Source: an uncultured Winogradskyella sp. | GTDB taxonomy: Bacteria > Bacteroidota > Bacteroidia > Flavobacteriales > Flavobacteriaceae | Direction: 5' to 3' | DNA: 64,000 nt | NCBI RefSeq assembly: GCF_947495255.1 | Contig: NZ_CANLYI010000004.1 | Coordinates: forward strand, 124,001 to 188,000 | Shown: piece by piece, positions 31,714 to 54,555 of the stretch | Position numbering within the stretch: position 1 is the stretch's first letter | How the letters are laid out: every line of letters starts with the position of its first letter | Made by a program: the position numbers and the translations under genes | Notes under the pieces: generated by a model | The model's input: only the letters and a program-made list of their open reading frames with translations | Told to the model about the DNA's origin: nothing | The model's database searches: none

Positions 31714-31729
31714 TGTTTCACGTGGAACA
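31714..31729. promoter_or_regulatory. parS-like site (TGTTTCACGTGGAACA)
   Basis: 16-bp near-palindrome matching the ParB-site core. Confidence 0.7.
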
Positions 31730-31734
31730 TTATT

Positions 31735-33606
31735 TTATCTTCCTAAATAAACCAATAAAACAGAAATATCATTAGGTGAAACTCCACTAATTCGAGATGC
31801 TTGAGAAATGGTTACTGGTTTAATTTTATCTAATTTTTGCCTAGCCTCTATACTCATGGATTTCAATTTTGAATAATCAAAATCAGCAGGAATCTTTAAA
31901 CCTTCTAATCGATTTAATTTATCGGCATTGTTTTTTTCCTTCTCAATATAACCAGCATATTTTACTTGAATTTCAGTTTGCTCTATTACTTCATTATCTA
32001 AATCATTAGCCTGAATATAGTTTTCTACAGCTTCAAATTTACGTACATCATCTATTGTAATATTTGGTCGAGCATATAACTTAAACATTTTATCTTGCTG
32101 CTTAACAGTTGCAGAATTCTTAGATTCTAAAACAGGATTAGCTTCATCTGGTGTTATACTTGTATCTTTAAAAAACTGCACAAAGGCTTCAGATTTAGAT
32201 TGCTTTTCTTCCATACGTCTTAATCGTTTTTCCGATGCTAAACCTAAACCATAACCTTTTGGTGTTAACCTAAAGTCTGCGTTATCTTGTCTTAAAAGCG
32301 TTCTATATTCGGCACGAGATGTAAACATTCTATAAGGCTCTTCAGTACCTTTTGTAATTAAGTCATCTATTAAAACACCAATATAAGCTTCATCACGCTG
32401 TAATGTAAACGCTTCCTTTTCTTGCACTTTTAAACTCGCATTAATACCAGCCATCAAACCTTGAGAAGCTGCTTCTTCGTAACCCGTTGTTCCATTTATC
32501 TGACCAGCGAAATATAAGCCTTCAACTAACTTAGTTTCTAATGTGTGCTTTAATTGTGTTGGTGGAAAATAATCGTATTCAATTGCATAACCTGGTCTAA
32601 AGAATTTTACGTTTTCAAAACCTACAACAGAACGTAAGGCTTTAAATTGAACATCTTCTGGTAATGACGTAGAGAATCCATTTATATAATATTCGCACGT
32701 ATTCCACCCTTCTGGTTCTACAAATAATTGATGTCTATCCTTATCAGCAAACCGATTAATCTTATCTTCAATTGAAGGACAATAACGAGGGCCAACACTT
32801 TTAATTCGACCATTAAACATTGGCGAACGGTCAAAACCTTCACGCAATAAATCATGGACCGCTTCACTCGTATAAGTCAAATGACAAGAACGCTGATGTG
32901 TTAGTGGTTTTGTAATATCCAAATATGAAAATTTTTCAGGATTCTCATCTCCTGGCTGTTCAACCATTTTTGAAAAATCTAAAGAACGACCATCAACTCT
33001 TGGTGGTGTTCCTGTTTTCATTCTTCCAGATTCGAAACCTAAATTTACAAGTTGTTCTGTAATTCCGGTTGCCGCTCTTTCACCTGCTCTTCCTCCTCCA
33101 AAATTCTTATCGCCAATATGAATTAATCCATTTAAAAAAGTTCCGTTAGTAAGTACAACTGACTTTGCTCTCACCTCAACTCCGAGTGATGTTTTTACAC
33201 CAACCACTTTGTGATTTTTAACAATAAGACCAGATACCATCTCTTGATAGAAGTCAAGATTTTCGGTTCCTTCTAAAAGCATTCTCCAATCTTCCGCAAA
33301 ACGCATTCTATCAGATTGCACTCTAGGACTCCACATTGCAGGTCCTTTAGATTTATTAAGCATCTTAAATTGTATCGCAGATGTATCTGAAACGATTCCG
33401 CTATAACCTCCAAGCGCATCAATCTCTCTTACAATTTGCCCTTTTGCTATTCCTCCCATTGCAGGATTACAAGACATCTGAGCGATGTTTTGAAGATTCA
33501 TGGTAATCAATAATGTTTTGCTTCCCATATTTGCAGCAGCCGCAGCAGCTTCACTTCCTGCGTGACCTGCACCAACAACTATAACATCATATTCCTCGTT
33601 AAACAT
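31735..33606 (-). CDS. mnmG: tRNA uridine-5-carboxymethylaminomethyl(34) synthesis enzyme MnmG (GidA)
   Basis: YDVIVVGAGHAGSEAAAAAANMG, QMSCNPAMGGIAKGQIVREIDALGG, FAGQINGTTGYEEAASQG. Confidence 0.98.
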   Translation of the reverse strand: MFNEEYDVIVVGAGHAGSEAAAAAANMGSKTLLITMNLQNIAQMSCNPAMGGIAKGQIVREIDALGGYSGIVSDTSAIQFKMLNKSKGPAMWSPRVQSDRMRFAEDWRMLLEGTENLDFYQEMVSGLIVKNHKVVGVKTSLGVEVRAKSVVLTNGTFLNGLIHIGDKNFGGGRAGERAATGITEQLVNLGFESGRMKTGTPPRVDGRSLDFSKMVEQPGDENPEKFSYLDITKPLTHQRSCHLTYTSEAVHDLLREGFDRSPMFNGRIKSVGPRYCPSIEDKINRFADKDRHQLFVEPEGWNTCEYYINGFSTSLPEDVQFKALRSVVGFENVKFFRPGYAIEYDYFPPTQLKHTLETKLVEGLYFAGQINGTTGYEEAASQGLMAGINASLKVQEKEAFTLQRDEAYIGVLIDDLITKGTEEPYRMFTSRAEYRTLLRQDNADFRLTPKGYGLGLASEKRLRRMEEKQSKSEAFVQFFKDTSITPDEANPVLESKNSATVKQQDKMFKLYARPNITIDDVRKFEAVENYIQANDLDNEVIEQTEIQVKYAGYIEKEKNNADKLNRLEGLKIPADFDYSKLKSMSIEARQKLDKIKPVTISQASRISGVSPNDISVLLVYLGR

Positions 33607-33621
33607 ATTGAATTTTTATTT

Positions 33622-33637
33622 TGTTCCACGTGGAACA
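33622..33637. promoter_or_regulatory. parS-like site (TGTTCCACGTGGAACA)
   Basis: Perfect 16-bp palindrome (18 bp with flanking T/A). Confidence 0.75.
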
Positions 33638-50027: not shown

Positions 50028-52274
50028 TTACTCACTATCAACTTCTGGTTTCCCAACCATATAAAAATCAAGATGTTTCTTGGTTAAATCTGCATTTTTA
50101 ACTTTTACAATAACTTCATCTCCTAGTTGATACATGATACTAGATTTTTTACCAACCATAGCATATTGATCCTGGTCAAACTGATAGTGATCATCTTTCA
50201 TATCTCTAACACTTACCATACCTTCACATTTATTAGAAATTATTTCTATATAAATTCCCCAATCTGTTACACCAGAAATAACACCCAAAAATTCTTCGTC
50301 TTGATGATCTTGCATAAAACGAATTTGCATGTATTTAATAGAATCGCGCTCTGCTTTAGTTGCTAAATATTCCATATTACTAGAATGTTTACAACGTTCT
50401 TCGTAAATTTCTTCGTTAGCTGATTTTCCACCATCTAAATACAATTGTAATAAACGATGCGCCATTACATCTGGATAACGACGAATAGGCGATGTAAAGT
50501 GACTGTAATACTCAAAAGCTAAACCATAATGACCAATATTATGTGTTGTATACTCGGCTTTAGACATGGTTCTAATCGTTAATGTATCTACTAAATTTTG
50601 TTCTTTTTTACCAACAACATCTTTTAGTAAGTTATTTAAAGATGATGCAATACTACCTTTATCTTTAAAATTTAATTTATGTCCAAAACGTGCTACAACC
50701 GTTTGAAGTTGTGCTAGTTTTTCATCATTAGGTTCATCATGCACACGATACACAAAGGTTTTCTTTTGTTTTCCAACAAATTCTGACACCTTTCTGTTAG
50801 CTAATAGCATAAATTCTTCAATCATTTTATTCGCATCTTTACTTGTTTTAAAGAATACGCCTACTGGATTTGCTTCTTCATCTAAATCGAATTTTACTTC
50901 AACTTTATCAAAAGAAATGGCTCCATCTCGCATACGTGCATTTCGCATTTTACGAGCCAATTGATTCATTTTTATAGTTGCTTGTGCAATATCTACATCA
51001 GTTTGATATTCTTCTCCAGTTAATGAGACCTCTGCAGGAATTGTAGTATCAATCTTTTTCTTATGCTTTAAAACATCAACTTCGTTAATTGTTGCGTTGT
51101 TTTCAATGATAGCTTGCGCTTCTTCATATGCAAAACGTGCATCAGAATAGGTTACTGTTCTACCAAACCATTCGTTTTTAATTTCGCATTTTTCATTCAT
51201 TTGAAACACTGCAGAAAACGTATATTTTTCTTCGTGTGGGCGTAATGAACATGCTCCATTAGATAAAACTTCTGGCAACATAGGCACTACTCTATCTACT
51301 AAATAAATAGAGGTTGCACGCTCATAAGCTTCATCATCTAAAACAGTTCCTGGTTGCAAATAATGCGATACATCTGCAATATGTATTCCTATTTCATATA
51401 AGCCATTATCTAACACTTTAAAAGATAAAGCATCATCAAAATCTTTAGCATCTTTTGGATCTATGGTAAAGGTTAAATCTTTACGCATATCTCTACGCTT
51501 TGCAATTTCTTCTGGTTTAATTTCTAAATCAATGTTGTTGGCATAATCTTCTACCTCTTTAGGAAACTCCATTGGTAATCCATATTCTGCCATAATAGAG
51601 TTAATCTCAGTACCATGTTCACCTGGTTTACCAAGTACTTCAATAACTTTACCGTTTGGTGAATCTGATTTTTCTGGCCAATCTTCTAAAGAAACCAATA
51701 CTTTATCACCATCTTCGGCTTTATTAATTTTATTGATAGGTACAAAAATATCAGTGTACATTTTGTTGCTATCTGCTACAACAAAGGCAAAATTCTTTTT
51801 CTCATGAATTTGAATAGTACCAACATATTCCGTTTTTGCACGTTTAATAATATTGGTAATTTCTCCTTCTTGTTTGCCTCTATGACGTCTCTTATAAGCG
51901 TAAAATTCTACTTCATCACCATTTAAAGCTTTATTAATATTGTTTGAAGCAATAAATACGTCTTCTTCAAAATCATCGCAAATAATATAACCGTTTCCTT
52001 TAGCAGCTAAATCTAAAATACCTGTATGATATTCTGTATTTACTATAGCTTTAAATTTACCACGATCCACTTCTTCAATCTCTTGTTTTGCTTTAAGTTG
52101 TTGAAGTTTCTTTATAATTTGATTGCGACTACTAGCATCATTAACGCCTAGTTTAGCTGCAATTTGTTTGTAATTAAAAGTTGAGTTTCTTTCTTTTTTT
52201 AAAATACTAAGAATTGTATTTGTAAGGTTGGAAATCTTGTTATGTGAAGGTTTCCTGTGTTTCTTTTTTGTCAT
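50028..52274 (-). CDS. rnr: ribonuclease R
   Basis: DLTFTIDPKDAKDFDDALSF, HIADVSHYLQPGT, AFEYYSHFTSPIRRYPDVMAHRLL, S1 domain. Confidence 0.97.
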   Translation of the reverse strand: MTKKKHRKPSHNKISNLTNTILSILKKERNSTFNYKQIAAKLGVNDASSRNQIIKKLQQLKAKQEIEEVDRGKFKAIVNTEYHTGILDLAAKGNGYIICDDFEEDVFIASNNINKALNGDEVEFYAYKRRHRGKQEGEITNIIKRAKTEYVGTIQIHEKKNFAFVVADSNKMYTDIFVPINKINKAEDGDKVLVSLEDWPEKSDSPNGKVIEVLGKPGEHGTEINSIMAEYGLPMEFPKEVEDYANNIDLEIKPEEIAKRRDMRKDLTFTIDPKDAKDFDDALSFKVLDNGLYEIGIHIADVSHYLQPGTVLDDEAYERATSIYLVDRVVPMLPEVLSNGACSLRPHEEKYTFSAVFQMNEKCEIKNEWFGRTVTYSDARFAYEEAQAIIENNATINEVDVLKHKKKIDTTIPAEVSLTGEEYQTDVDIAQATIKMNQLARKMRNARMRDGAISFDKVEVKFDLDEEANPVGVFFKTSKDANKMIEEFMLLANRKVSEFVGKQKKTFVYRVHDEPNDEKLAQLQTVVARFGHKLNFKDKGSIASSLNNLLKDVVGKKEQNLVDTLTIRTMSKAEYTTHNIGHYGLAFEYYSHFTSPIRRYPDVMAHRLLQLYLDGGKSANEEIYEERCKHSSNMEYLATKAERDSIKYMQIRFMQDHQDEEFLGVISGVTDWGIYIEIISNKCEGMVSVRDMKDDHYQFDQDQYAMVGKKSSIMYQLGDEVIVKVKNADLTKKHLDFYMVGKPEVDSE

Positions 52275-52363
52275 TTAATTTGTAATCATATTCATTTCCT
52301 ATAAGTGATAGGAATTCTAATTTAAAACTTAATTAAGGCGAAGAGAGGTTATTAAGTTTAATA

Positions 52364-52371
52364 CAAAGTTA
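52364..52371 (-). promoter_or_regulatory. Bacteroidota -7 element for rnr
   Basis: CAAAGTTA (+) = TAACTTTG (-) ~90 nt upstream of rnr ATG. Confidence 0.5.
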
Positions 52372-52416
52372 CGTTTTAATTTTTTAATGGTGTTTATAGA
52401 ACGTTAAATTAATGAA

Positions 52417-52443
52417 AAAGCACTGTAAAATTTACAGTGCTTT
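52417..52443 (-). terminator. terminator-like hairpin in a divergent intergenic region
   Basis: AAAGCACTGTAAA-A-TTTACAGTGCTTT; T5 tract on minus strand. Confidence 0.65.
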
Positions 52444-53173
52444 AGGTTAGAATTATAATATTAAAACTAGTTTATAATTAACTTTTTAGACCGTTTTCCT
52501 TTGTTTGTTTCTATTTCTATTAAGTATAAACATAGTATTAATTTGAGTTATTCACTCATTAAATAGAGAATTTATATTTTACTAAAAGTATATTATTATA
52601 AAACAGATTTTAATACCATTTACCTATTATTCACTAAAATTTACAGTTATCAACATATATATACATATAATCAGTTTTCTTTTAAAATTTTAAAAAATAA
52701 ATGGTGGTTATTATAGTATGTTAATAGTGACTATAACTTTTTGAAATTTTATTTTGATTAACCGTAGTTTACATTTTACAACATTTTAGTTAACATTAAA
52801 TTTACATATAACTACTTCATTTTAAAGCTAAATTAAAAAGCTATTAACAGTTGTTAATAACAGATGTTAATAGAAATAACTGATATGTTTATTTATAAAT
52901 CTTGTTCATTTCACTACAAATGATCTTTAATAACTATCTCTAAAAAAATAGCTAACTAATTAGGTTATCTCATCTGTTTTTTGGTTTGGAAAAATAAGTG
53001 GATAAACCTAATTTTAGTTTTAAAGAGTTGTGAACAGTTATTAACAAGTAGTGATCATTTTTAGTTGTACTTATGAACAGTGATAATAAAAGCTTATAAA
53101 GAACTTAAGTTTCAAACTTAAAATTTATGAATAAGTATGCCGTTATAAGTTATGCTTACTTATAAGCAATTAT
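52444..53173. other. candidate replication origin-like region (AT-rich, noncoding, DnaA-box-like and TGTTAATA repeats)
   Basis: No ORF; TTATTCACT x2, TTATCCACT, and clustered TGTTAATA(A/G). Confidence 0.4.
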
Positions 53174-53181
53174 TAACTTTG
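53174..53181 (+). promoter_or_regulatory. Bacteroidota -7 element for rpiB
   Basis: TAACTTTG 27 nt upstream of ATG 53209. Confidence 0.5.
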
Positions 53182-53208
53182 ATGTTTAATAACAAAACAC
53201 TTTTTATT

Positions 53209-53643
53209 ATGAAAATTTCTATAGGTAATGACCATGCTGGACCAGATTATAAATTTACTATCGTAAAACATTTAGAAGCTAAAGGCTATACAGTTACAAA
53301 TTACGGAACAGATACGTTAGATAGTGTTGATTATCCAGATTTTGTACATCCTGTTGCTAAAGATGTTGAAGCTAAAAAAGTAGATTTTGGTATCTTAATT
53401 TGTGGAAGTGCAAATGGTGTAGCAATGACTGCTAATAAGTATCAACATGTAAGAGCTGGTGTTTGTTGGACTAACGAAATTACAGAATTAACACGTTTAC
53501 ATAATAATGCTAACATTATATGTATTCCTGCGCGTTTTACATCAATTCCACAAGCCATTAAAATGGTAGATACGTTTTTAGAAACAAAGTTTGAAGGTGG
53601 TCGTCATCAAAATAGAGTAGATAAGATTCCAGCATCATGTTAA
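53209..53643 (+). CDS. rpiB: ribose 5-phosphate isomerase B
   Basis: MKISIGNDHAGPDYKFTIVKHLEAKGYTVTNYGT, LICGSANGVAMTANK; start moved to internal Met downstream of promoter motif. Confidence 0.94.
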   Translation: MKISIGNDHAGPDYKFTIVKHLEAKGYTVTNYGTDTLDSVDYPDFVHPVAKDVEAKKVDFGILICGSANGVAMTANKYQHVRAGVCWTNEITELTRLHNNANIICIPARFTSIPQAIKMVDTFLETKFEGGRHQNRVDKIPASC

Positions 53644-54555
53644 ATGAGTCACTCACATAATCATTCACATAATCATAAAGATTTACAAGGACAGAAGTTA
53701 TTAATTTCAATATTCTTAAATATTGTTATAACAGTAGCTCAGGTTATTGGCGGACTAGTTTCTGGAAGTTTATCTTTACTTAGTGATGCCTTACATAATT
53801 TTAGCGATGTTATTTCTCTGATAGTAAGTTATGTAGCTTCTAAATTATCTAAGCAAAAAGCATCAATAAATAGAACTTTTGGTTATAAACGAGCAGAAAT
53901 TCTTGCTGCTTTTATCAATGCAAGTACGTTAATAATTGTAGCTGTATTATTAATAATTGAAGCCGTAAAACGTTTTAATAACCCGCAAGAAGTAGAATCT
54001 AATCTTGTAATTTGGTTATCTATTATTGCAATTATTGGTAATGGCTTAAGTGTTTTATTATTAAAAAAAGATTCTAAAAATAATATAAATATGCGTTCTG
54101 CATATCTGCATTTGCTTACAGATATGTTAGCAAGTGTTGCTGTATTAATAGGTGGATTATTAATGAAGTATTACCAATTATTTTGGGTAGATAGTTTATT
54201 AACATTGTTAATTGCTTTGTATTTAATTTGGGTTGGATATGATTTATTAAAGGTCTCTACGAAGATGCTTATGTTGTTTACACCAGATGATATCAATATA
54301 AAAAAGGTAGTAAGAGCTGTCAATAAACTACCTAAAGTAAGTAAGCTTCACCATGTACATATTTGGAATTTAAGTGATGACGAATTACATTTAGAAGCCC
54401 ATTTAGATTTATCAGAAGATATTACGACTACAGAATTTAATAATTTGCTTTTAAAAATTGAGACTATTTTACACAACGAGTTTAATATTAACCATGTCAC
54501 TATTCAACCAGAGTTTAATAAAGAAGATCCTAAGGAGGTAATTGTACAAGACTAA
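53644..54555 (+). CDS. cation diffusion facilitator (CDF) transporter
   Basis: His-rich N-terminus, SLLSDALHNFSDVISLIVSY, HHVHIWNLSDDELHLEAHLDL. Confidence 0.94.
   Translation: MSHSHNHSHNHKDLQGQKLLISIFLNIVITVAQVIGGLVSGSLSLLSDALHNFSDVISLIVSYVASKLSKQKASINRTFGYKRAEILAAFINASTLIIVAVLLIIEAVKRFNNPQEVESNLVIWLSIIAIIGNGLSVLLLKKDSKNNINMRSAYLHLLTDMLASVAVLIGGLLMKYYQLFWVDSLLTLLIALYLIWVGYDLLKVSTKMLMLFTPDDINIKKVVRAVNKLPKVSKLHHVHIWNLSDDELHLEAHLDLSEDITTTEFNNLLLKIETILHNEFNINHVTIQPEFNKEDPKEVIVQD

What the first reader, a model, noticed from the sequence alone, without database searches (positions are those of the whole stretch)
52275..53208. Candidate replication origin between rnr and rpiB
Seen: a ~0.9 kb noncoding, very AT-rich gap in an otherwise compact segment. 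It carries DnaA-box-like 9-mers (TTATTCACT 52548-52556 and 52627-52635; TTATCCACT on minus, 52997-53005; near match TTATCAACA 52647-52655) and repeated TGTTAATA(A/G) in both orientations (52719, 52841-52849, 52852-52860, 52865-52873, 53038-53046). Known: bacterial oriC regions combine an AT-rich unwinding region with clustered DnaA boxes; Bacteroidota oriC need not sit beside dnaA. Inference: an oriC or plectonemic/regulatory element. TTATTCACT also occurs by chance elsewhere (e.g. 6061), so the cluster, not single boxes, is the signal.
Basis: partly seen in the sequence, partly recalled or inferred. Interest (0 to 1): 0.7.

Follow-up and report, generated by a model that had tools for sequence, protein, structure and literature searches.

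The report
Chromosome replication origin of Flavobacteriaceae
The stretch between the genes rnr and rpiB is almost certainly where this marine flavobacterium (Winogradskyella or a close relative) starts copying its chromosome; the same DNA element sits in the same place across its family, 19 kb from the gene mnmG that published genome papers use to mark the origin.

Summary
The 934-bp rnr/rpiB gap (52275-53208; 21% GC) is noncoding. It holds the densest cluster of DnaA-box-like 9-mers in 400 kb of its contig: 6 of 64 sites.

Four lines of evidence make it oriC. (1) A single-copy core, about 52642-53080, is conserved in this position and orientation across Flavobacteriaceae, in 75 of 80 loci. 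It keeps its box array even where genes were inserted on either side. (2) GC skew in complete relatives switches sign at or near the gap. On the window's own contig, third-codon-position skew corrected for gene strand switches at 176.0 kb; the gap lies at 176.3-177.2 kb. (3) Perfect parS sites occur in the window's genome only at mnmG, 19 kb away. (4) The dnaA locus has no boxes.

The conserved boxes are TTATCAACA (52647) and YTATTAACA (52719, 52841, 52852, 52865, 53038). At the 52647 position relatives interchange TTATCAACA with canonical TTATCCACA, which supports TTATYAACA as this family's DnaA box. Two published genomes place oriC at mnmG; that spot has parS but no boxes. DnaA binding, unwinding and initiation remain untested.

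The parts
52275..53208 (.). noncoding rnr-rpiB gap that contains oriC
   Evidence: no ORF of 60 aa or more other than the rpiB frame extension; GC 0.209; divergent rnr/rpiB order kept in 75 of the 77 GTDB loci with room to see it
52642..53080 (.). conserved oriC core
   Evidence: profile from 10 gaps hits only this gap in 4.3 Mb searched and 75 of 80 family loci, always in the same orientation to rpiB; most family matches end near model position 410-443, about window 53050-53085
52647..52655 (+). DnaA box TTATCAACA at the edge of the unwinding element
   Evidence: conserved; the same position reads TTATCCACA in 18, TTATTCACA in 8, TTATTAACA in 7 and TTATCAACA in 24 of 74 family sequences
52656..52715 (.). 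probable DNA unwinding element (DUE)
   Evidence: 60-mer 52655-52714 is in the least stable 0.08% of the contig and among the most conserved bins of the core; function inferred
52719..52727 (-). DnaA box CTATTAACA facing the DUE
   Evidence: YTATNMACA in 62 of 78 family sequences
52841..52849 (+). DnaA box CTATTAACA, first of a triplet
   Evidence: 48 of 61; triplet conserved in the alignment
52852..52860 (-). DnaA box TTATTAACA, inverted to 52841
   Evidence: 49 of 71; palindromic pair
52865..52873 (-). DnaA box CTATTAACA, third of the triplet
   Evidence: 18 of 61 strict, others degenerate (TTGTCAACA in 10)
53038..53046 (+). DnaA box TTATTAACA
   Evidence: 35 of 59 strict, 17 more read ATATTAACA
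53071..53079 (+). weak DnaA-box-like TTATGAACA
   Evidence: reads TTATCAACA in several close relatives
   Evidence: present, partly conserved (TTATCCACT, TTATCCAGT, TTATTCATT)
   Evidence: present but not conserved; probably not part of the core
   Evidence: present but not conserved; probably not part of the core
52417..52443 (.). perfect 12-bp-arm hairpin, terminator-like
   Evidence: fold z -4.4 on plus and -6.0 on minus; not conserved beyond the closest relatives
50028..52274 (-). rnr (ribonuclease R), left flank, transcribed away
   Evidence: Pfam RNB 2.3e-104
53209..53643 (+). rpiB, right flank, transcribed away
   Evidence: Pfam LacAB_rpiB 8e-55
31714..31729 (.). parS site TGTTTCACGTGGAACA
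   Evidence: perfect match; only 2 perfect and 1 one-mismatch sites in the 4.2-Mb genome, reversed-pattern control 0
33622..33637 (.). parS site TGTTCCACGTGGAACA next to mnmG (GIDA match 32413-33588)
   Evidence: same arrangement at mnmG in four complete relatives

Best explanation
[quoted passage not shown] Inferred mechanism: DnaA, encoded far away on another contig, binds an array of TTATCAACA/YTATTAACA boxes. Two boxes face an AT-rich unwinding element at 52656-52715, and a palindromic triplet plus further boxes to the right complete the array. The DnaA assembly melts the unwinding element, helicase is loaded, and forks leave leftward through rnr and rightward through rpiB. Shown here: box clustering, single copy, family-wide conservation, the skew switch, low duplex stability and nearby parS. 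Inferred: DnaA binding, melting and initiation.
For: Box cluster is the densest in 400 kb. Family-wide box enrichment: CTATTAACA 67 against 1.4 expected, TTATCAACA 32 against 1.25, TTATCCACA 17 against 0.33 over 56 gaps. The core profile finds only the gap in 4.3 Mb and is present in 75 of 80 loci, always in one orientation. Genes inserted in some species on the rnr side (for example L059, L062, L064, L110, L116) or the rpiB side (L054, L055, L060, L061, L096) leave the box array in place and almost always point away from it. Skew: the two-arm fit is best with ori at the gap for Lacinutrix neustonica and Formosa L2A11; gap-as-ori permutation p = 5e-5, 0.0021 and 0.00025 for the Winogradskyella complete genome, Lacinutrix and Formosa. 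Third-codon-position skew corrected for gene strand switches at 176.0 kb on the window's contig (2-lnL interval 172-178 kb; gap 176.3-177.2 kb) and at 2289 against 2286.4 kb in Lacinutrix. parS sites only at the ori-proximal mnmG. The dnaA locus has no boxes.
Against: No experimental evidence. The raw GC-skew minimum lies 44 kb from the gap on the window's contig, 24-32 kb away in Formosa and Lacinutrix and about 9 kb away in G186; only G014 puts it within about 2 kb. The corrected fit in G014 prefers 4286 kb, 14 kb off, and G186 is uninformative. The bootstrap 90% interval on the window's contig is 160-215 kb. The window's own copy has no box matching TTATNCACA exactly.
Confidence: 0.95

Rival explanations
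1. The origin lies next to mnmG, about 19 kb to the left (window 32-34 kb), as published for two other Flavobacteriaceae with Ori-Finder, and the rnr-rpiB gap is something else.
For: Published placement at mnmG in Algorimicrobium (PMC12843772) and Mariniflexile (PMC11278836); mnmG is oriC-proximal in all five genomes checked.
Against: No YTATYMACA or TTATNCAC cluster near mnmG; its flanks carry parS sites instead. Corrected skew disfavours mnmG by 16.6, 12.3 and 13.1 lnL units in the window's contig, Lacinutrix and Formosa; G014 and G186 do not discriminate.
Confidence: 0.03
2. The gap is a divergent regulatory region (promoters plus binding sites of a transcription factor or DnaA) for rnr and rpiB, not an origin.
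For: It lies between two divergently transcribed genes and must hold their promoters; DnaA also acts as a transcription factor in bacteria (own knowledge).
Against: The box array stays together when 1.3-8 kb of other DNA separates it from rpiB, or 1.3-4.7 kb from rnr. The skew switch and parS proximity are not explained.
Confidence: 0.015
3. The gap is a DnaA-titration or reactivation site (datA- or DARS-like) near a true origin elsewhere.
For: Such sites also carry clustered DnaA boxes and are noncoding (own knowledge); the cluster itself is real.
Against: No better box cluster on the 400 kb of contig around it; it has a conserved, very unstable AT-rich element between facing boxes and coincides with the skew switch.
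Confidence: 0.005

Closest known systems
DnaA-dependent bacterial oriC (Escherichia coli, Bacillus subtilis type)
   Same: Clustered DnaA boxes next to an AT-rich unstable element, single copy, at the GC-skew switch, between genes transcribed outwards
   Different: Dominant box is YTATTAACA/TTATCAACA instead of TTATNCACA; not next to dnaA; no clear DnaA-trio seen by eye
Other Bacteroidota oriC predictions (Prevotella intermedia PMC4755523; Elizabethkingia meningoseptica PMC8994065)
   Same: Away from dnaA, with DnaA boxes at the skew transition
   Different: The passages read do not mention the rnr-rpiB context, and describe TTATCCACA-type boxes (Elizabethkingia) or a search with E. coli boxes and one mismatch (Prevotella)
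Published Flavobacteriaceae origins at mnmG (PMC12843772, PMC11278836)
   Same: Same chromosomal neighbourhood: mnmG is about 12-23 kb from this gap in the five genomes measured here
   Different: The box cluster and conserved core lie at rnr-rpiB; mnmG carries parS

Membership tests
DnaA-dependent bacterial oriC | Cluster of at least three DnaA boxes spaced under 100 bp on average (criterion quoted in PMC7561715) | tested here: met
   Six YTATYMACA boxes in 400 bp, against 0.26 expected in the whole gap; an equivalent position carries canonical TTATCCACA in 18 relatives
DnaA-dependent bacterial oriC | AT-rich, easily melted element beside the boxes | tested here: met
   52655-52714 is in the lowest 0.08% of duplex stability on the contig and conserved; melting itself not shown
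DnaA-dependent bacterial oriC | Position at the switch of strand composition | tested here: met
   raw minima scatter up to 44 kb
DnaA-dependent bacterial oriC | Single site in the chromosome | tested here: met
   Core profile hits only the gap in 4.3 Mb (partial genomes); a BLAST of the gap against the whole own genome finds only itself and its own hairpin
DnaA-dependent bacterial oriC | DnaA encoded in the genome with a box-reading domain IV | tested here: met
   dnaA on C8; helix-5 motif reads RDHATV where B. subtilis has RDHTTV
DnaA-dependent bacterial oriC | DnaA-trio motif beside the DUE | tested here: inconclusive
   By eye on the sequence at most three consecutive trio-like triplets beside the box at 52719, in AT-rich DNA where this means little; no statistical test was run
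DnaA-dependent bacterial oriC | DnaA binding, unwinding, autonomous replication | not testable with these tools
   Needs bench work
oriC at mnmG (published placement) | Box cluster and skew switch at mnmG | tested here: not met
   No cluster; skew switch fits worse in three of five genomes and does not discriminate in two

The most novel reading that the evidence does not exclude
Flavobacteriaceae share one ancestral oriC at rnr-rpiB and their DnaA reads a shifted box (YTATYAACA: A at position 6), possibly tied to alanine at the specificity position equivalent to E. coli T435; tools that look for TTATNCACA or use mnmG as marker would miss or misplace it.
Probability: 0.5. Interest if true: 0.6.

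Novelty: new member of a known kind. Interest (0 to 1): 0.45.

Why it matters
An origin location and box consensus that hold across a large family would allow oriC to be annotated correctly in many genomes, correct dnaA- or mnmG-based chromosome starts, and allow growth-rate estimates from coverage and oriC-plasmid design in a group with few genetic tools. The ori-parS spacing of about 20 kb gives a ready system for ParB and replication studies.

Tried and rejected
dnaA as origin: the dnaA locus L003 has no boxes. mnmG as origin: no box cluster, worse skew fit. RNA element: no Rfam match in the gap. The raw cumulative GC-skew minimum on one 400-kb contig was too noisy to place the origin; third-position skew corrected for gene strand was used instead. 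Class-wide survey: adjacent divergent rnr/rpiB was seen only in members of the window's own family; elsewhere the two genes, when near, lie on one strand (read by eye). The same-order genome G090 has rnr and rpiB on one strand with two boxes upstream of rpiB. DoriC itself could not be consulted.

Full report
What is there. The window is contig C4:124001-188000 of a 4.21-Mb, 47-contig draft genome whose closest named rpiB relatives are Winogradskyella psychrotolerans and W. eximia (97% identity). Between rnr (minus, 50028-52274) and rpiB (plus, true start 53209) lies a 934-bp gap with 21% GC. In 400 kb of the contig the best 600-bp stretch for YTATYMACA is this gap, with 6 of 64 sites. The pattern was partly chosen from gap sequences, so this count alone is somewhat circular; the profile and skew tests below are not.

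Conservation. Of 80 GTDB loci fetched by rpiB similarity alone, 75 have rnr divergent upstream, with gaps of 0.57-1.6 kb in most; three others end before rnr could be seen. Unbiased word counts over 56 gaps return CTATTAACA (67 against 1.4 expected), TTATTAACA (68 against 5.7), TTATCAACA (32 against 1.25) and TTATCCACA (17 against 0.33). A DNA profile from ten Winogradskyella-group gaps finds the gap and nothing else in 4.3 Mb at E up to 1e-3, reaching Aquimarina, Aureisphaera and Flavobacterium. It misses the most distant complete genome, G186. In 75 of 75 loci with a match the core has the same orientation to rpiB. In about 19 loci with gaps above 1.7 kb the extra DNA sits on the rnr side, the rpiB side or both. 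The inserted genes almost always read away from the core (exceptions L079, L085, L105), and the core stays whole or keeps at least much of its box array. This separates the element from the promoters of rnr and rpiB.

Anatomy. From left to right: box TTATCAACA (52647) leading into 60 bp of very unstable DNA (52655-52714, lowest 0.08% of the contig), a facing box CTATTAACA (52719, minus), a palindromic triplet (52841 plus, 52852 minus, 52865 minus), then TTATTAACA (53038) and TTATGAACA (53071). The most unstable 60-mer of the gap, 52555-52614, and both TTATTCACT boxes lie in the non-conserved left part. At the 52647 position relatives carry TTATCAACA 24, TTATCCACA 18, TTATTCACA 8 and TTATTAACA 7 times out of 74. 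Because the canonical DnaA box and the A-variant replace each other at one site, the YTATTAACA boxes are best read as DnaA boxes. DnaA here has RDHATV where B. subtilis has RDHTTV. The changed residue corresponds to E. coli T435, a base-contact residue whose T435M change makes DnaA defective in box binding (PMC7561715, PMC5742627). A causal link to the box change is a hypothesis.

Strand composition. Coarse sampling of complete genomes fits an origin at the gap: Lacinutrix neustonica and Formosa L2A11 put the gap among the best-fitting origin positions, and gap-as-origin permutation p values are 5e-5 (G014), 0.0021 and 0.00025. In G014 the local cumulative minimum (4273378) is within about 2 kb of the gap. 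Elsewhere raw minima are 9-44 kb away. After correcting third-codon-position skew for gene strand, the switch falls at 176.0 kb on the window's contig (gap 176.3-177.2), 2289 kb in Lacinutrix (gap 2286), 1139 kb in Formosa (gap 1135; 4.2 lnL units worse at the gap) and 4286 kb in G014 (gap 4272; 3.4 units worse). G186 is uninformative. The bootstrap interval on the window's contig is wide, 160-215 kb.

parS. The consensus TGTTNCACGTGNAACA occurs perfectly at 31714 and 33622 in the window, flanking mnmG, and at mnmG in all four complete relatives (one mismatch in G186), with zero hits for the reversed control. One ParB is encoded on another contig. This places the centromere about 19-21 kb from the core, an arrangement usual for ori regions (own knowledge).

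Relation to published work. Two Flavobacteriaceae papers place oriC at mnmG with Ori-Finder 2022 (PMC12843772, PMC11278836); the Mariniflexile paper's text and figure legend disagree on which of oriC and ter is at mnmG. A Prevotella paper states that oriC in Bacteroidetes is commonly far from dnaA (PMC4755523). No paper in the held library names rnr, rpiB and oriC together. DoriC could not be consulted, so prior automatic predictions at this place are possible. The finding is therefore a well-supported new member of a known kind, with a family-specific box consensus as the more novel part.

Noticed in passing
31714-31729 and 33622-33637: Two perfect parS sites flank mnmG, the only perfect ones in the genome; conserved at mnmG in four relatives.
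   Followed up: yes
52417-52443: Perfect 12-bp-arm hairpin, terminator-like on both strands, between two divergent genes; suggests an unannotated transcript or insulation of oriC. Not conserved beyond the closest relatives.
   Followed up: partly
L003:1087-2514: DnaA helix-5 motif RDHATV, alanine at the E. coli T435 position, alongside boxes with A at position 6.
   Followed up: partly
L231:9085-12500: In a same-order genome of another family rnr and rpiB are on one strand, with two DnaA-box-like sites upstream of rpiB; oriC may track rpiB more widely than rnr.
   Followed up: no
L054, L055, L060, L061, L096 and L059, L062, L064, L092, L110, L116, L117: Genes inserted beside oriC in some species, transcribed away from the core.
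   Followed up: partly
53649-53676: Short 12-bp tandem repeat TCATTCACATAA at the start of the cation-efflux gene after rpiB.
   Followed up: no
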